Shown: positions 832-47,668 of the stretch, one piece after another
Position numbering within the stretch: the stretch's first letter is position 1
Layout of the letters: the number at the start of each line of letters is the position of its first letter
Notes under the pieces: generated by a model
The model's input: only the letters and a program-made list of their open reading frames with translations
Databases searched by the model: none
Told to the model about the DNA's origin: nothing
Source of the DNA: Geobacteraceae bacterium
GTDB lineage: Bacteria; Desulfobacterota; Desulfuromonadia; Geobacterales; Pseudopelobacteraceae
DNA: 64,000 nt
Assembly: GCA_013336525.1 (NCBI GenBank)
Contig: JAAXTM010000003.1
Coordinates: 305,553-369,552, forward strand
Direction of reading: 5' to 3'
Made by a program: the position numbers and the translations under genes

Positions 832-2673
832 ATGGGCTATAAAAATTTGCAGGAATGTGTAGCTGATCTTCAGCAAAGAGATCAGCTTCTTAGGATTGAT
901 GTGCCGCTTGACCCGTATTTGGAGATCGGCGCATTGCAACGGCGTGTGTATCAGGCGGGAGGACCGGCGCTGCTTTTCACAAATGCGGTTGGCTGCCGTT
1001 TTCCACTTCTGGGCAACCTGTTTGGAACTCTTGAGCGCACCCGCTTCATTTTCCGCGATACGCTTGATGATATCCGCCGGCTTGTAGAGCTTAAAATAAA
1101 CCCTTTTTCACTGATCAAAAACCCGCTTGATATTATTAAAGCCCCTGTTGCTGCCTATCATCTTCTTCCAACTGTCAGGTCTGAAGCACCGGTTCTGGAA
1201 TGTTCAACTACCCTGTCCGATCTGCCACAGATCGTTTCATGGCCCATGGATGGCGGTGCTTTTCTGACACTGCCGCAGGTGTACAGTGAAAGCCCGGCAG
1301 CGCCAGGTTTTGCCAAGTCCAATCTCGGCATGTACCGGATACAGATATCAGGCAACAGCTATCAGCCAGACAAACAGGCCGGACTTCACTATCAGATTCA
1401 TCGCGGTATCGGCGCTCACCATGCCGAAGCAATTGCGCGTGGAGACCTGCTGAGAGTCAACATTTTTCTTGGTGGGGCGCCAGCCATGACCGTAGCTGCT
1501 GTAATGCCACTGCCGGAAGGGATGCCGGAGATATCGTTTGCCGGCCTGTTGGCCGGACATCGCGTTCCGATGACCAGGGTTCCGGGGCATCTGCCGGTTT
1601 ACTCTGAAGCTGATTTTTGCATCAGCGGCGTTGTCCATCCATCCAAAACCCTGCCTGAAGGTCCTTTCGGTGACCACTTAGGCTATTACAGCCTGACTCA
1701 CGAATTCCCTTTTATCGAGGTGGATGCGGTCTATCACCGGAGGGATGCCATTCTTCCTTTTACGACCGTTGGACGTCCGCCGCAGGAGGATACAAGTTTT
1801 GGAGCCTTCATACATGAACTGACCGGTCCGCTGATTCCGACCGTAGTGGCTGGTGTAAAGGAGGTGCATGCGGTAGACGCTGCCGGTGTTCACCCGCTCC
1901 TGCTGGCAATTGCCAGCGAACGTTATGTCCCGTATTCGGGCGTCCGCCAGCCGCAGGAACTGTTGACTGTTGCCAATGCCATACTAGGTCAGGGGCAACT
2001 ATCTCTTGCAAAATACCTGTTCATTGCTGCTCAAGAGGATGCGCCGTCCCTCCATACGCATGACATTGCCGCATTTATTGGTCATATCCTGGAGCGAGCC
2101 GACTGGCGAACAAATCTGCATTTTCAGACCTCAACAACAATAGACACCCTTGACTATAGCGGTTCCGCTCTTAACGAGGGCTCTAAAGTGGTGGTCGCTG
2201 TCGCCGGTCCTGCGCGACAGAAACTGGCAACGGAAACGCCTGCCGGTCTTGAGCTGCCGCCAGGGTTCGGACCTGCAGCACTCTGCCTTCCGGGCATTCT
2301 TGCGATAAGCGCCCCCCCATCAACGCAGGGGAGGGGAGAGTGTGATCCGCTGCTTGATGAGTTCTGCCGTTTCTATCGCGACCGTGAAGCCTTTAAAGGT
2401 TTTCCGCTGGTTGTTATCTGCGACGACAGCCGTTTTTCGGCAGCGACACTGAATAACTTCCTTTGGGTGACTTTTACCCGATCCAATCCGGCGACTGACA
2501 TCTACGGCATTCGTCCCGAAAATCATGGCAGACATTGGGGGTGTAGCGGGTCATTGGTGATCGATGCCAGGATCAAGCCGTTCCATGCCCCGCCGCTCGT
2601 TGATGATCCGGCTGTAGAACGGAAACTTGATGCACTGGCAGCCCCTGGTGCTCCACTCCACGGGATTATCTGA
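832..2673 (+). CDS. UbiD-family decarboxylase
   Basis: A 613-residue member of the UbiD family, which decarboxylates unsaturated or aromatic acids using prenylated FMN made by a UbiX partner. The family signature is clear: EGPFGDHLGYYS around residues 278-289 carries the catalytic acidic residues. In the third quarter, TTIDTLDYSGSALNEGSK is followed by a conserved C-terminal VVICDDSRFSA region. In organisms of this group a protein of this length usually serves menaquinone synthesis, but the substrate cannot be read here. The next gene starts 1 bp after its stop, so it is probably co-transcribed with the ABC exporter. No UbiX gene lies in the window. A Pro/Gly-rich patch (SAPPSTQGRGE, around residue 495) is encoded by very G/C-skewed DNA and may be a lineage-specific insertion. 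Confidence 0.88.
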   Translation: MGYKNLQECVADLQQRDQLLRIDVPLDPYLEIGALQRRVYQAGGPALLFTNAVGCRFPLLGNLFGTLERTRFIFRDTLDDIRRLVELKINPFSLIKNPLDIIKAPVAAYHLLPTVRSEAPVLECSTTLSDLPQIVSWPMDGGAFLTLPQVYSESPAAPGFAKSNLGMYRIQISGNSYQPDKQAGLHYQIHRGIGAHHAEAIARGDLLRVNIFLGGAPAMTVAAVMPLPEGMPEISFAGLLAGHRVPMTRVPGHLPVYSEADFCISGVVHPSKTLPEGPFGDHLGYYSLTHEFPFIEVDAVYHRRDAILPFTTVGRPPQEDTSFGAFIHELTGPLIPTVVAGVKEVHAVDAAGVHPLLLAIASERYVPYSGVRQPQELLTVANAILGQGQLSLAKYLFIAAQEDAPSLHTHDIAAFIGHILERADWRTNLHFQTSTTIDTLDYSGSALNEGSKVVVAVAGPARQKLATETPAGLELPPGFGPAALCLPGILAISAPPSTQGRGECDPLLDEFCRFYRDREAFKGFPLVVICDDSRFSAATLNNFLWVTFTRSNPATDIYGIRPENHGRHWGCSGSLVIDARIKPFHAPPLVDDPAVERKLDALAAPGAPLHGII

Positions 2674-2674
2674 T

Positions 2675-3607
2675 ATGGCGACCGCTGCAATAGTCACCCG
2701 CTCCCTTACTAAATCCTATGGTGAGCTTACCGCACTTGATTCTTTTGATCTGGAAGTTGAGCATGGCTCCATCTTCGGCCTGCTCGGCCCCAACGGCGCC
2801 GGAAAGACAACACTGATCCGCATCCTGACTACACTCATGCGTCAGAGCAGCGGCGATGCTTCAATCGAAGGGCTGGATATTCTTCGTTCGGGGCGTGAAA
2901 TCCGTTCGATGATCGGGGTGGTTTCTCAGGAGAACAGCCTCGATCGCTATCTGACCGCCCGTGAAAACCTGGAGTTGCACGCCCGTCTGCACGGCATGGA
3001 AAAGAAGCTTTACAAGAGGCGGATTGATGACCTGCTTGAGCTCATGGGATTGGCTGGCCGCCAGAAAGATTTCCCCGATACCTTTTCAGGCGGCATGCAG
3101 CGACGTCTGGTGATTGCCCGTGCACTGGTACATCAGCCTCAAGTACTGTTTCTTGACGAACCGACCACCGGACTCGATCCGCAATCGCGCCGCGCTGTGT
3201 GGGAATATGTCCGCTCCCTTGCCGGAAGCATGACAATTTTCCTGACGACACACTATCTGGAAGAAGCTGAACAGCTCTGTGACAGGATCGCCATCATGGA
3301 TCACGGGCGATTGATCGCAATCGGGAGTACTCAGGAGTTGAAAGATCGTTTGAGCGGTGCAACTGTCTACGAAATCGAGTTTGCCGGACAGGATGCTGAC
3401 CACTATGCCGCACTGCTTGGTGCGATGCCATGTGTTATTGATCTCAAACAGGTGGAAAACAAAATTGCGATAACACTGGAGTGTTGGGAGTGCCTATCTG
3501 AAATTGTCACAGCCCTGAATGGAGTCCCTGTGCGACGTATTTCACTCCAGGAACGAACCCTTGAAGACGTTTTTATCTCTTTAACCGGTCAGAAGGTGAG
3601 GGAATGA
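2675..3607 (+). CDS. ABC transporter ATP-binding protein (DrrA/CcmA type)
   Basis: A 310-residue ATPase of an ABC-2 type exporter. Walker A is GPNGAGKTT, the Q loop VVSQENSL, the signature SGGMQRR, Walker B VLFLDEPTTGLDP and the switch His TTHYLEEAE; a C-terminal extension of about 80 residues is typical of the drug/antibiotic exporter (DrrA-like) subfamily. The frame is open farther upstream, but the first ATG after the ubiD stop (2675) leaves almost no gap and is preferred to a TTG at 2627 inside ubiD. It overlaps the permease gene by 4 bp (ATGA), which indicates translational coupling and one transporter. The substrate is unknown. Confidence 0.92.
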   Translation: MATAAIVTRSLTKSYGELTALDSFDLEVEHGSIFGLLGPNGAGKTTLIRILTTLMRQSSGDASIEGLDILRSGREIRSMIGVVSQENSLDRYLTARENLELHARLHGMEKKLYKRRIDDLLELMGLAGRQKDFPDTFSGGMQRRLVIARALVHQPQVLFLDEPTTGLDPQSRRAVWEYVRSLAGSMTIFLTTHYLEEAEQLCDRIAIMDHGRLIAIGSTQELKDRLSGATVYEIEFAGQDADHYAALLGAMPCVIDLKQVENKIAITLECWECLSEIVTALNGVPVRRISLQERTLEDVFISLTGQKVRE

Positions 3608-4362
3608 TGTTACGAGGTTCTCTGGCCATCTGGCAGCGCGACATGCTGATTCTGCGCCGCAGCATTATTTCGGAACTTGTGGCGGTGGTTGCCTATCCGC
3701 TGACCATCTATCTGGCATTCGGTATCGGCATGCAGAGTTATATCGGTTTGGTGGATGGGGCGCCATACAGCATGTTTATTGCCCCAGGTCTTATCACTAT
3801 GACCGCTGTCAGCGCCGCCTATAATGAAAGTGTCTGGAGCCTCTGGTTTCATCGCCGGGTTCAGTTTACAATCGAATCGTATCGTGTGACCCCGATTTCG
3901 GTGTCTGAAATTGTAATTGCCAAAATATTCACCGGGTTTACCCATGGCATCATCAAGGGGTGTGCCGTCGGACTGGTAATCTTTACGATCACCCCTTTTC
4001 GTTTTCCGCTGGAGCATCTCCTGCAGTATCTGTTGTTTCTGATACCAGGTTCGGCGCTGTTCTCCTGTGCCGGGATCATCAGCGGTACGGTTATGGACAA
4101 ACCTGAAACAATCGGCAAAGTTGAGGCGGTGCTTGTTATGCCGCTCATCTTCATGTCCGGGCTTTTCTTTCCGCTCTCTTCCTATCCGCCCTCAGTTGTT
4201 TCCTGGGTGCGGGCATTGCCGACCACCGCGCTTTTTGAAGGTGCCCGCCGGGTGCTGGTTGCAGGGGATATGCAGTCACTGGCTGCGCTACAGGTTTCAT
4301 TGTCGGCAATAGTTGCTTTTGTTGCAGCGGTTTGTATATTCCGCTATAAGATGTCGGAATAA
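3604..4362 (+). CDS. ABC-2 type permease
   Basis: A 252-residue integral membrane protein with about six hydrophobic segments, the partner of the ATPase just upstream (4-bp ATGA overlap; ribosome site GGTGAGGGA). The sequence VTPISVSEIVIAKI, followed by a long membrane region and the MSGLFFPLSSYPP loop before the last two helices, is the ABC-2 permease pattern seen in NodJ/DrrB-like exporters. One ATPase and one permease would form a 2+2 exporter. The linkage to a ubiD-type gene recalls lipid or quinone metabolism, but no substrate can be stated. Confidence 0.9.
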   Translation: MMLRGSLAIWQRDMLILRRSIISELVAVVAYPLTIYLAFGIGMQSYIGLVDGAPYSMFIAPGLITMTAVSAAYNESVWSLWFHRRVQFTIESYRVTPISVSEIVIAKIFTGFTHGIIKGCAVGLVIFTITPFRFPLEHLLQYLLFLIPGSALFSCAGIISGTVMDKPETIGKVEAVLVMPLIFMSGLFFPLSSYPPSVVSWVRALPTTALFEGARRVLVAGDMQSLAALQVSLSAIVAFVAAVCIFRYKMSE

Positions 4363-45134: not shown

Positions 45135-45340
45135 CTCGTCTCCTCTTGGGTATTCTTCTTCATTGGCTGTCTGATGACTGTCTTCCAGTTCTCGGGCGCT
45201 GCTCTTCTGATGTTGTTCAGGTAGATTTCGTGATGCTTTCCAGTATTGGTGTAGCCACAGTCTCGAATGAACGTTCGATAGTTGGCCCTGGGACGAGCAG
45301 AAATCTGTGCAGAATCATGTCATTCTCCGCGCCGCCAGGT
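45131..45340 (-). pseudogene. C-terminal remnant of a GyrI-like domain protein
   Basis: One frame carries FIRDCGYTNTGKHHEIYL and NIRRAAPENWKTVIRQPM, the C-terminal signature of GyrI-like (SbmC) small-molecule-binding proteins. The part just before it (GPTIER) is in another frame of the same strand, and the N-terminal two thirds are missing. So the gene is truncated and frameshifted. Its stop overlaps the VOC start by ATGA, which suggests it was once the first gene of the pair. The left boundary is approximate. Confidence 0.6.
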
Positions 45341-45419
45341 ATGGAAGCGTGCCACCCATGCCAGCAGACCCTCGGGCGCATGCGCCTTCTTCCAGACACC
45401 GCCGCCGATCACCACGAGG

Positions 45420-45635
45420 TCATTCCATGTCTTTTTTCTGTTGGGACCTTGTTTCACCAGGGATCAGCCCCAGCCCCAAGCCGATAATACCGCCATAGAG
45501 TGCCCCCGTCCAGGGGGAACCAAGCATCATTCAGCCGCCGCCGGTGCAGCTGCCCAGCCAGCCGAACAGCGCACCTGCTACGGCACCAATAGTTATGAAA
45601 ACAACGATCTTAAGCAGGGATACCATAATGCTCAT
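45420..45635 (-). CDS. Candidate selenoprotein: DUF6132-like small membrane protein with in-frame UGA
   Basis: Reading through one UGA at 45533-45531 gives a 71-residue protein: membrane helix (LLKIVVFITIGAVAGALFGW), then CTGGG-U-MMLGSPWTGALYG, a second helix (GGIIGLGLGLIP) and a charged tail. The motif matches small membrane proteins annotated DUF6132, which have C-x-x-G-x-C-P…P…YG; the UGA falls on the second Cys. A hairpin (CCCCC-UGGAC-GGGGG) begins 13 bases past the UGA, with G in the second loop position, as required for bacterial SECIS. Starts at 45635 or 45626 (AGGA upstream of either). Downstream of htpX on the same strand. The alternative is a recent nonsense mutation. Confidence 0.55.
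45503..45533 (-). promoter_or_regulatory. SECIS-like hairpin after the in-frame UGA
   Basis: UGA, 13 bases, CCCCC, loop UGGAC, GGGGG; the outer pairs U-A and G-C extend the stem past one mismatch. The loop lies 19-23 bases after the UGA, within the distance known for bacterial selenocysteine insertion elements, and carries a G at position 2. Confidence 0.5.
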
Positions 45636-45697
45636 TCCTGTTTCTTCGGCGGTAGTGTGAGTAGACAAAATGTGGTTCAGTCATGCAATACTGATAT

Positions 45698-46579
45698 TTA
45701 CCCCATGCGTCTGAGCGCTTCGATCCGCTCCTCCAGCGGCGGATGGGTCATAAACAGCCGTTTCAAGCCGCCGCCAACCGTTCCGGAGATGCCGAAGGCG
45801 GCCATCTGGTCCGGCAGGTGCGGCTGACCGGCGGTCATGCGCAGCCTTTCAAGGGCTGCCACCATCTTGTCCCGTCCCGCCAGGGCGGCGGAGCCGGCAT
45901 CCGCCCTGAACTCACGCTGGCGGCTGAACCAGCATACGATAATACTGGCGAGGAGGCCGAATACCATCTGGGCGATCATCGAGGTGATAAAAAAGCCGGG
46001 ACCATGCTCCCGCTCGCTTTTGAGTATCACCCGGTCAACAAAATATCCGACCAGACGCGAAGCAACGATGACAAAGGTGTTCACCACCCCCTGAATCAGT
46101 GCCAGGGTAATCATGTCGCCGTTGGCCACATGGCTGACCTCATGGGCCAGAACCGCCTCCGCCTCGCCCTTGTCCATTGCACGGAGCAGGCCGGTGCTGA
46201 CCGCCACCAGGGCGTTGTTACGGTTCATCCCGGTGGCAAAGGCGTTGACATCCGGTGCGTCATAGATTGCTACTTCAGGCATGTTGATGCCGGCCTTCAA
46301 CGCCTGACGGCGGACAACTTCCACCAGCCAGGCCTCCACTTCGCTGGACGGAGAAACTATCACCCGGGCCCCGGTCATCCGCTTGGCGGACCATTTGGAG
46401 ATGGCCAGCGAAATCAGCGAGCCACCGAAGCCGAAGACAGCGGCAAAGACGATAAGACTCGTCATGTCGATCCCCTGCTGATTCAGCTTAGGGCCGACAC
46501 CAAGCAGATTCACTACAGCACTGAGGACAAAAACAATCGCCAGGTTGGTGATAATAAAAAGTGTGATTCGTTTAAACAT
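45698..46579 (-). CDS. htpX: Membrane zinc protease HtpX
   Basis: A 293-residue M48 protease: two N-terminal helices (residues 7-28 and 38-58), then HEVSH ([14 protein letters not shown], about residue 144) and the third zinc ligand in [13 protein letters not shown], two more helices between them, and the C-terminal [14 protein letters not shown]. HtpX cleaves misfolded inner-membrane proteins together with FtsH. GGAGG precedes the ATG. It follows the YeeE-type pair by 46 bp on the same strand, and the UGA-containing gene follows it. Confidence 0.95.
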
Positions 46580-46625: not shown

Positions 46626-47153
46626 CTAGAGCCCTTTTTTTTCAATCCAGCGAAACAGGAACAGGGCTCCGGCTACAATTGGTATGATGATAATCCAATG
46701 GTTGATTCCAAGCAGTTGCGGGACGGTAATCTTGCCGAAGTTACCCCAGGTCAGTACCGTTGCCTTCATGGTGGGAAATGCTTCTGCGTAGAGTCCCGCG
46801 CCAACCAGCATACCGGCAATTCCCCATATTGAATCCCAGCGCCCTTCACCCAAAGCTCCGGCGGAGGTGCCGGGACAGTAGCCCAAAAGCCCCCACCCAA
46901 GGCCGAACAGTATGCCTCCGATGATATTCGCCCCCAGGATGGTGGTCTTTATCGAGAGTTTGGCCAGCTCAAGGTCAACCAGCAGGTAGGTCCCCACCAT
47001 GGCGACGACGACGCTGGTGAGCATGAATTTTATGATGGTCATATCCTTGAGGAGAAGGGCACCCAGCTGTTTGTCGTAGCGTAAGACCCGTCCTTTCTGC
47101 AGCAGAAAGCCGAATAAGAGGCCGGTGATAAGTCCATAGAACAGTTCATTCAT
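46626..47153 (-). CDS. YeeE/YedE-type half transporter (second gene)
   Basis: A 175-residue membrane protein with four or five helices and the GYCPGTSAGALGEG motif, whose Cys is conserved in YeeE/YedE (sulphur transport) proteins. This is the two-gene form, in which each polypeptide is one half of the usual single-chain transporter. Full-length YeeE imports thiosulphate, and related YedE proteins are linked to selenium metabolism. GGGAGGTGA precedes the ATG, inside the 3' end of the other half (4-bp overlap). The transport substrate here is inferred only from family. Confidence 0.87.
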   Translation of the reverse strand: MNELFYGLITGLLFGFLLQKGRVLRYDKQLGALLLKDMTIIKFMLTSVVVAMVGTYLLVDLELAKLSIKTTILGANIIGGILFGLGWGLLGYCPGTSAGALGEGRWDSIWGIAGMLVGAGLYAEAFPTMKATVLTWGNFGKITVPQLLGINHWIIIIPIVAGALFLFRWIEKKGL

Positions 47154-47668
47154 CGGTCACCTCCCGCATACACAAGCCGCGCCATTATTATGCCGCCGAT
47201 AAAGAAGCAGGCCAGTGAAATGTAGCCGCTTACCGCCAGTTGGAGTGAGCCGCTCAGCCCATGCCCGCTCGGACAGCCGTCAGCCAGGCGGGCGCCGAAC
47301 ATGGCGATTATTCCCCCCAGGAAGGCTGTAATTCCCCGTTTTATTTTACTCGGACCAAAGCGCTGTTCCCAGAGCGTGGGAACTCCCTGGAGGCGGAAAG
47401 AAGAATCTCCGGTGGCAGAAATCAGGGCACCGAGAAATATGCCGACTATAAACATGCTCTGCCAGTCGATTTTGGGAACCTCCTTGATGAAGTATTCCAT
47501 CTGTGACACCCGCTCGGGACTAACGAGCTTTTCCAGCATGCCGGTCGTACGTACAAAAGTGGTTGAAGCACCAAAATACTTGCCAGTGAACCATACCGAG
47601 CCGATACTGACCAGTCCTGCAAGTGCCCCGGCCATGTATGGACTCCATGCTTTTCCGTTGTTTGCCAT
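47150..47668 (-). CDS. YeeE/YedE-type half transporter (first gene)
   Basis: A 172-residue membrane protein with about four helices and the signature GARLADGCPSGHGLSG, including the Cys that handles sulphur in YeeE. It is first of the pair (AAGGAGAG upstream; 4-bp ATGA overlap with the next). Together the two halves supply both Cys motifs of the transporter, so the unit looks complete. The pair commonly sits near rhodanese or TusA genes; none is seen here. Thiosulphate, sulphur or selenium species are all possible substrates. Confidence 0.88.
   Translation of the reverse strand: MANNGKAWSPYMAGALAGLVSIGSVWFTGKYFGASTTFVRTTGMLEKLVSPERVSQMEYFIKEVPKIDWQSMFIVGIFLGALISATGDSSFRLQGVPTLWEQRFGPSKIKRGITAFLGGIIAMFGARLADGCPSGHGLSGSLQLAVSGYISLACFFIGGIIMARLVYAGGDR

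What the first reader, a model, noticed from the sequence alone, without database searches (positions are those of the whole stretch)
45420..45635. Possible new selenoprotein: small membrane protein with in-frame UGA and SECIS-like hairpin
A 71-codon frame is interrupted only by one UGA. Both sides keep coherent coding: two membrane helices and a motif (C-T-G-G-G-U…GSPWTGALYG) that matches a small membrane family (DUF6132, recalled) in which the UGA position is normally Cys. Starting 13 bases past the UGA there is a CCCCC/GGGGG hairpin with loop UGGAC (G at loop position 2), which fits bacterial SECIS rules. A Cys position replaced by UGA is the classic mark of a selenoprotein. I know of no described selenoprotein of this family. 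The other reading is a recent nonsense mutation.
Basis: partly seen in the sequence, partly recalled or inferred. Interest (0 to 1): 0.85.

Follow-up and report, generated by a model that had tools for sequence, protein, structure and literature searches.

The report
New membrane selenoprotein family, DUF6132
The gene of a tiny bacterial membrane protein carries an in-frame UGA 'stop' codon, followed by a hairpin, where relatives without the selenium-insertion gene selA have cysteine, so it is predicted to insert selenocysteine there and would be an uncatalogued selenoprotein family, likely one that handles sulfur or thiol electrons.

Summary
A 68-codon frame (likely start 45626) has one internal UGA (45533-45531). 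Read through, it matches Pfam DUF6132 (39.9 bits; cut-off 23.2), and the UGA falls on the family's second invariant Cys. It is not a private mutation: genome searches that ignore stops gave 25 homologous loci, 24 in the window's phylum and 1 in Chloroflexota, all with one in-frame UGA at that site. A downstream hairpin keeps loop GGUC (22) or GGAC (3). All 24 UGA-form genomes tested have selA; none of 30 Cys-form Bacteroidota genomes tested does. The window's genome has selA, selB, selD, tRNA-Sec and a formate dehydrogenase with in-frame UGA. The 2026 catalogue of 119 prokaryotic selenoprotein families does not list DUF6132. I call it a new selenoprotein family (about 0.95); Sec insertion is untested. 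Function is weaker: a two-helix membrane protein with a CX4U pair, likely a thiol or persulfide relay. Cys forms often sit beside thioredoxin-like and rhodanese genes, and the same-genus copy is followed by a rhodanese fusion, YeeE and SulP; but the other UGA-form neighbourhoods examined lack such genes.

The parts
45420..45626 (-). DUF6132 selenoprotein gene, 68 residues plus terminator: ATG 45626-45624, terminal UGA 45422-45420; C27-x4-U32 motif
   Evidence: alignments A1, A2, A4
45531..45533 (-). in-frame UGA predicted to encode selenocysteine; column of the second invariant Cys of DUF6132
   Evidence: UGA at this column in 25 of 25 loci found without regard to stops
45503..45517 (-). SECIS-like hairpin CCCCC UGGAC GGGGG, 18 nt from UGA to loop; the relatives' register (one base on) is also possible and gives loop GGAC closed by a U-G pair
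45627..45640 (-). probable ribosome-binding region (CAGGAATGAGCATT) before the likely start
   Evidence: Sequence; by eye
45698..46579 (-). htpX membrane protease (M48), next gene upstream
   Evidence: NF003965, 422.9 bits
46626..47153 (-). YeeE/YedE-family half protein (Sulf_transp), no in-frame UGA
   Evidence: PF04143, 52.6 bits
47150..47668 (-). YeeE/YedE-family half protein (Sulf_transp), no in-frame UGA
   Evidence: PF04143, 75.3 bits
47769..50564 (-). P-type cation ATPase; a shorter homologue lies just upstream of the UGA-form gene in same-genus genome G011

Best explanation
This is a DUF6132-family gene whose in-frame UGA is predicted to be read as selenocysteine, making a 68-residue protein, likely of the membrane, that would carry a Cys-x4-Sec pair. 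Predicted steps: SelB brings Sec-tRNA to the UGA by binding the GGUC/GGAC-loop hairpin that starts 13 nt downstream. The product would fold as two glycine-rich helices joined by a short loop, with Cys27 at the end of helix 1 and Sec32 in the loop. The Cys-Sec pair would cycle between reduced and selenenyl-sulfide (or persulfide/perselenide) states, passing electrons or sulfane sulfur between thioredoxin-like or rhodanese partners and membrane sulfur carriers such as YeeE. Shown here: family match, conservation of UGA and hairpin, co-occurrence with the Sec machinery. Inferred: Sec insertion (about 0.95), redox use of the pair (about 0.7), sulfur relay as the task (about 0.35). The side of the membrane was not tested. 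The confidence below is for the selenoprotein claim.
For: Family: PF19628 39.9 bits; C27 and the UGA column are two of five invariant columns in 57 homologues. Recurrence: 14 of 147 relatives and 12 of 395 genomes of the phylum have a match; every match (14 and 14, four shared) has exactly one stop, TGA. In Chloroflexota 7 of 400 have a match; the 2 with the full motif both have TGA, one of them (L196) being the search's own centre, found earlier by a SECIS pattern. In Bacteroidota 64 of 296 have matches and 0 of 68 matches contain TGA. SECIS, on the 25 loci found without a SECIS pattern: loop GGUC 22, GGAC 3; pair 21-28 C-G 19, A-U 3, U-G 1, C.U 2; pair 18-31 C-G 17, U-G 4, U-A 2, U.U 2; Gly codon GGG in 20 of 20 against 249 of 1370 in window ORFs. 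At least 5 of 7 in-register pairs can form in 26 of 26 UGA forms against 1 of 29 Cys forms. The window hairpin meets the published bacterial SECIS rules (PMC13188914 section 5). Machinery: selA above cut-off in 24 of 24 UGA-form and 0 of 30 Cys-form genomes; own selA, selB, selD, tRNA-Sec; own formate dehydrogenase with one TGA and a hairpin loop GGUCU. Function: a thioredoxin-like BLAST cluster within 1.5 kb in 20 of 30 Cys-form loci, Pfam names; in same-genus G011 the UGA-form gene is followed by an MBL-rhodanese fusion, a YeeE-family protein and SulP; the window has YeeE halves nearby.
Against: No direct evidence of selenium. Rfam SECIS_1 finds nothing in the genome, though it rang in none of 14 control genomes either; Rfam found nothing over 45300-45800. 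Folding energy past the UGA is ordinary against shuffles. Against synonymous recodings, pairing in the family register is rare (0.05 or less) for 8 of 12 loci tested but not for L018, L036, L038, L040, and energy is low for only 4 of 12. The minimum-energy fold of the 39 nt holds the family-register pairs in 16 of 26 loci; the window and G011 fold one base off, and eight others (L027, L033, L035, L036, L038, L039, L040, L041) fold otherwise. L035 and L036 have a C.U mismatch in the stem. The Cys-form control is poorer in G+C (0.42 against 0.63), so part of its lack of pairing is composition. Window against G011: differences at codon positions 1, 2, 3 are 3, 3, 4 before the UGA and 6, 3, 5 after it, so these two alone show no clear purifying selection. 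A clear tRNA-Sec (over 65 bits) was found in 16 of the 22 UGA-form genomes of the window's phylum; G309 has a candidate at a contig end, and G071, G073, G074, G255, G487 have none clear. Function: of 16 longer UGA-form neighbourhoods only G011 had a rhodanese or YeeE homologue, none had a homologue of the two thioredoxin-like queries, and the window has no homologue of that rhodanese fusion. No background rate of thioredoxin neighbours was computed. Both AlphaFold models are poor (pLDDT 63.9 and 62.7, pTM 0.33).
Confidence: 0.93

Rival explanations
1. The UGA is a recent nonsense mutation and the gene is decaying.
For: G011 is the only other same-genus genome with a match, so the gene is often absent; the window/G011 differences are not concentrated at third codon positions.
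Against: UGA is at the same column in 25 of 25 loci found without regard to stops; their matches hold no other stop; sequence past the UGA is conserved.
Confidence: 0.01
2. Two separate small proteins: translation stops at the UGA and restarts at the ATGATG right after it.
For: The window has UGA-AUG-AUG; a public protein entry (P0036) begins at the matching place and another (P0039) ends at the UGA.
Against: Several homologues have no start codon right after the UGA (for example UGA then GGG CCT, AGA CTC, CCG ACA). Cys homologues are one continuous protein. The Cys/UGA split follows selA.
Confidence: 0.02
3. The UGA is read as tryptophan or another residue, not selenocysteine.
For: Five of 41 public predicted proteins show W at this column (P0002, P0003, P0008, P0009, P0018), probably because a pipeline used a code with UGA = Trp; their DNA was not seen.
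Against: The gene itself ends with UGA in 16 of 26 UGA forms, the window included; the column is Cys in the Cys forms; UGA forms co-occur with selA; a SECIS-like hairpin is conserved.
Confidence: 0.02
4. It is a selenoprotein, but its role is not sulfur relay: it is a membrane thiol/selenol antioxidant or metal-binding protein, or a helper of membrane protease HtpX.
For: In the window the nearest upstream gene is htpX, 71 nt away on the same strand. Most UGA forms have other neighbours, by eye and recalled names a DUF454-like, an ion-antiporter-like or a pseudouridine-synthase-like gene.
Against: No htpX homologue was found by BLAST among ORFs of 36 pattern-selected loci or of 16 longer neighbourhoods, partly the same loci; thioredoxin and sulfur neighbours recur in Cys forms.
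Confidence: 0.4

Closest known systems
DUF6132 (Pfam PF19628), Cys form, e.g. Bacteroidota and Candidatus Omnitrophota
   Same: Same family, two hydrophobic segments, Cys-x4-Cys at the same place, P after five residues in most.
   Different: The second Cys is UGA here. The Cys motif is usually C-x-[ST]-G-x-C, the UGA motif usually C-x-G-x-x-U, so a Gly has moved. Cys forms mostly cannot form the hairpin, and the 30 tested genomes have no selA.
YeeE/YedE thiosulfate transporter selenoprotein (PF04143, GUxSG), in the 2026 catalogue PMC13188914
   Same: Membrane protein of sulfur transport with Sec in place of a conserved Cys (recalled); a YeeE pair without UGA lies near this gene.
   Different: Different Pfam family and motif; larger; the window's YeeE halves have no in-frame UGA.
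Putative mercuric transport selenoprotein (PF02411, C/SxxU), same catalogue
   Same: Small membrane protein (recalled) with a Cys-Sec pair.
   Different: This protein has no match to PF02411 at E 1 or better; its spacing is x4, or x5 in some relatives, not xx.
DUF1858 selenoprotein (PF08984, CxxU), same catalogue
   Same: DUF1858-like genes are frequent neighbours of Cys-form DUF6132 (9 of 80 neighbour proteins at E 0.001; the one shown is below Pfam's cut-off), so two families of one module may both have Sec forms in other bacteria.
   Different: Unrelated sequence; no such gene was seen among the window gene's nearest neighbours scanned.

Membership tests
DUF6132 (PF19628) | score over Pfam gathering cut-off when read through | tested here: met
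   39.9 bits against 23.2; 34.1 bits in the genome search
DUF6132 (PF19628) | two glycine-rich hydrophobic segments around a conserved Cys-x4-Cys loop and Pro | tested here: met
   Invariant G18, C27, C/U32, P38, G49 in 57 sequences; low-confidence models give helices 2-28 and 38-54
Bacterial selenoprotein | in-frame UGA at a position that is Cys in homologues | tested here: met
Bacterial selenoprotein | SECIS: loop 3-9 nt, stem 4-16 bp, G in first two loop positions, 16-37 nt from UGA, energy at most -7.5 kcal/mol (rules as in PMC13188914) | tested here: met
   Loop UGGAC, 5 bp, 18 nt, -12.3 (39 nt) and -13.8 kcal/mol (44 nt); geometry. bSECISearch itself was not available
Bacterial selenoprotein | Rfam SECIS_1 (RF00031) match | tested here: inconclusive
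   0 matches in the genome, but also none in 14 controls
Bacterial selenoprotein | selA, selB, selC and selD in the genome | tested here: met
   605.9, 368.1 (with the neighbouring match in its frame), 71.9 and 381.1 bits
Bacterial selenoprotein | recurrence of UGA/Cys pairs across species | tested here: met
   26 UGA-form loci (25 without pattern bias); 29 of 30 Cys-form loci extracted with a pattern that requires Cys
Bacterial selenoprotein | selenium in the purified protein | not testable with these tools
   needs 75Se labelling or mass spectrometry
A selenoprotein family already in print (2026 catalogue, 119 families) | listed by Pfam/NCBIfam id or motif | tested here: not met
   Table 1 read in full: no PF19628 or DUF6132; no NCBIfam 20.0 model above cut-off

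The most novel reading that the evidence does not exclude
DUF6132 is a membrane-embedded Cys-x4-Sec relay of only 50-70 residues that carries sulfane sulfur or electrons across or along the membrane for a rhodanese/YeeE/thioredoxin module; Sec stands in for Cys where the host keeps the Sec machinery.
Probability: 0.33. Interest if true: 0.82.

Novelty: new member of a known kind. Interest (0 to 1): 0.72.

Why it matters
It adds a recurring family to the bacterial selenoproteome that gene callers cut in two, and gives an unannotated membrane family (DUF6132) a likely redox-active pair. UGA and Cys forms split with selA (24 of 24 against 0 of 30 genomes tested), so one short gene makes the Cys-to-Sec exchange, with SECIS evolution inside a coding motif, directly testable. 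It also points to selenium in membrane sulfur handling next to YeeE, itself a catalogued selenoprotein family.

Tried and rejected
Rejected readings: nonsense mutation, stop-and-restart, UGA as Trp (see rivals). Rfam SECIS_1 and a local Rfam scan gave nothing and were not informative. A protein search with the single window sequence found nothing; the alignment search found 41 proteins. A scan of named genomes with alignment A1 found nothing, as its pattern needed a Cys codon. The same pattern in viral contigs gave 6 hits, none of the family. BLAST of the window's neighbours against the 36 loci gave no hits. The tree (24 UGA and 33 Cys rows, 63 columns) puts the 15 same-class UGA forms in one supported set but does not settle how often Sec arose (2 label changes on the best tree, 1 not ruled out); the U column, stored as Cys, was left in it. 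AlphaFold models were too weak for fold searches, so none was run. Papers: 'DUF6132' in full text gave one unrelated paper; further searches. Seen of papers: PMC13188914 abstract, section 5, section 7 parts 1 and 2 of 3, and found passages; PMC12013277, PMC1794560, PMC1242214, PMC1914089, PMC11073785 found passages only; others listing only.

Selections made: of the 41 proteins, 33 went into A4 (dropped: the five with W at the UGA column, the two halves P0036 and P0039, and P0029). 80 of 149 neighbour ORFs of at least 60 aa from the 30 Cys-form loci went into the Pfam tally, chosen by me as the nearest ones. Loci were returned for 30 of the 68 Bacteroidota matches, and selA was sought in those 30 genomes of 64. 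L178 was not extracted by the motif, whose patterns require Cys (Cys set) or TGA plus CCNTGG (UGA set); all 26 UGA-form loci passed. 16 UGA-form neighbourhoods were fetched at length. Synonymous recoding was run on 12 of 26 loci.

Full report
1. The observation. On the minus strand, window 45626 to 45420 holds ATG, 30 further sense codons, UGA (45533-45531), 36 sense codons and a terminal UGA. The upstream ATG at 45635 is less likely as start: the AGGA touches it, but lies 9 nt before the ATG at 45626 (by eye). Thirteen nt past the internal UGA lies CCCCC-UGGAC-GGGGG, with 18 nt from UGA to loop.

2. Family. Read through, the protein scores 39.9 bits with Pfam DUF6132 (PF19628; cut-off 23.2) over residues 6-57 of the 72 read, on both sides of the UGA. 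NCBIfam has no model for it above cut-off. In an alignment of 57 homologues (24 UGA forms, 33 Cys forms) the invariant columns are G18, C27, C/U32, P38 and G49: the UGA stands at the second invariant Cys.

3. The UGA is shared. DUF6132 was sought in whole genomes without regard to stops. Relatives: 14 of 147 genomes, 14 matches, each with one TGA. Phylum: 12 of 395 genomes, 14 matches, each with one TGA, 10 of them new. Chloroflexota (phylum): 7 of 400 genomes; two matches have the full motif and one TGA each, the other five are weak partial matches without a stop and without the motif. One of the two, L196, is the centre genome, which a SECIS pattern had found (L090), so it is not independent. 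Together 25 loci in 23 genomes free of pattern bias, and 26 in 24 with L196. Bacteroidota: 64 of 296 genomes, 68 matches, none with TGA, one with a TAA; 29 of the 30 loci returned gave the motif with a Cys codon at this column (the pattern required Cys). The five codons between UGA and the Pro codon are constant (the pattern required that spacing, and no UGA-form locus was lost to it).

4. The hairpin. In the register used for relatives the stem pairs columns 16-22 with 27-33 and the loop is columns 23-26 (column 1 is the U of UGA). On the 25 unbiased loci: loop GGUC 22, GGAC 3 (the window, its same-genus relative, and L195 of Chloroflexota). Pair 21-28 is C-G 19, A-U 3, U-G 1, C.U 2: where Gly (GGG) became Trp (TGG), three of five loci have CCA instead of CCC for Pro, which keeps a pair, and two have the mismatch. 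Pair 18-31 is C-G 17, U-G 4, U-A 2, U.U 2. The Gly codon is GGG in 20 of 20, against 249 of 1370 Gly codons in 39 window ORFs; Pro is CCC in 21 of 25, against 125 of 761. At least five of seven pairs can form in 26 of 26 UGA forms and in 1 of 29 Cys forms, though the Cys set is poorer in G+C, 0.42 against 0.63. These loci are related, so counts are not independent events. Against synonymous recodings the pairing count is reached by 5% or less for 8 of 12 loci (window 0.0185 of 2000), the energy for 4 of 12 (window 0.13). Against dinucleotide shuffles the window's energy is ordinary. The window hairpin meets the bacterial SECIS rules quoted in PMC13188914. The formate dehydrogenase of the same genome has one in-frame TGA, followed by a hairpin with loop GGUCU.

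5. The machinery. The genome has selA (605.9 bits), selB (338.9; 368.1 with its neighbour), selD (381.1) and tRNA-Sec (71.9). selA is above cut-off in 24 of 24 UGA-form genomes and in 0 of 30 Cys-form genomes, five of which have weak matches far below it. A clear tRNA-Sec (over 65 bits) was found in 16 of the 22 UGA-form genomes of the window's phylum; one more lies at a contig end, and five lack a clear one, three of them only 73-85% complete.

6. How it likely works. Shown: sections 2 to 5. Inferred: SelB-dependent Sec insertion. The product has two hydrophobic glycine-rich segments; two low-confidence models make them helices with the Cys at the end of the first and the Sec in the link. The side of the membrane was not tested. 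Neighbours of Cys forms: a BLAST cluster of thioredoxin-like genes within 1.5 kb in 20 of 30 loci and a cluster with rhodanese members in 10; by Pfam, of 80 nearest neighbour proteins chosen from 149, 21 match Thioredoxin, 9 DUF1858, 8 Rhodanese, 3 YgaP-like_TM. In same-genus genome G011 the UGA-form gene is followed by an MBL-rhodanese fusion, a YeeE-family protein and a SulP permease. In the window two YeeE halves lie upstream beyond htpX. Against: of 16 longer UGA-form neighbourhoods only G011 showed a rhodanese or YeeE homologue and none a homologue of the two thioredoxin-like queries; the window has no homologue of the rhodanese fusion. I therefore commit to a thiol/selenol relay in sulfur or thioredoxin metabolism at about 0.35. 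YeeE transports thiosulfate by way of conserved cysteines and hands it to the cytosolic YeeD (PMC11073785, passages); a small Cys-Sec membrane partner would suit such a path, but that is conjecture.

7. Known or new. The 2026 catalogue lists 119 prokaryotic selenoprotein families and subfamilies; I read its whole table: DUF6132 is absent, YeeE/YedE (PF04143) and DUF1858 are present. 'DUF6132' occurs in one unrelated paper in the library. The passages seen of deep-Sep 2025, of the 2006 survey and of two earlier screens name no such family. Supplementary files were not read, and RefSeq annotation could not be searched. Public protein sets hold halves (P0036, P0039) and five entries with W at the UGA column.

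8. Taxa. Named UGA-form records include Trichlorobacter thiogenes ATCC BAA-34 (L043), a T. lovleyi MAG (L063), Pelovirga terrestris (L113), Desulfuromusa MAGs, and Dehalococcoidaceae and Dehalococcoidia MAGs. This list came from a SECIS pattern and shows reach, not frequency. G047, of the window's family, has a contig of the same length as that of L043, so the window's genome is probably a relative of Trichlorobacter (Desulfuromonadia).

Noticed in passing
L205:4284-5702, 3184-4050, 1500-3173 (genome G011): Same-genus UGA-form gene is followed by an MBL-rhodanese fusion, a YeeE-family protein and a SulP permease: a likely sulfur operon.
   Followed up: partly
window 46626-47668: YeeE/YedE is split into two half proteins that overlap by 4 nt, each with its own Cys motif (GYCPG, DGCPSG).
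   Followed up: no
G226 (L034, L040) and G255 (L032, L041): Two UGA-form DUF6132 paralogues per genome, one with SPWSG and one with PWSW; the PWSW copies have CCA for Pro, which keeps a stem pair possible.
   Followed up: partly
P0002, P0003, P0008, P0009, P0018: Public predicted proteins with Trp at the UGA column, probably called with a code that reads UGA as Trp; such entries could hide further selenoproteins.
   Followed up: no
G000:C28:286219-289227 (L221): Formate dehydrogenase with one in-frame TGA; its hairpin loop contains GGUC like most of the DUF6132 family's.
   Followed up: partly
L165-L194: Cys-form DUF6132 in Bacteroidota often lies with a DUF1858-like gene and a TlpA-like gene; DUF1858 also has a catalogued Sec form.
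   Followed up: partly
L179: Two Cys-form DUF6132 genes close together.
   Followed up: no
window 45135-45420: The spacer between the glyoxalase-family gene and the UGA gene holds frames broken by stops that may be remains of a gene (by eye).
   Followed up: no
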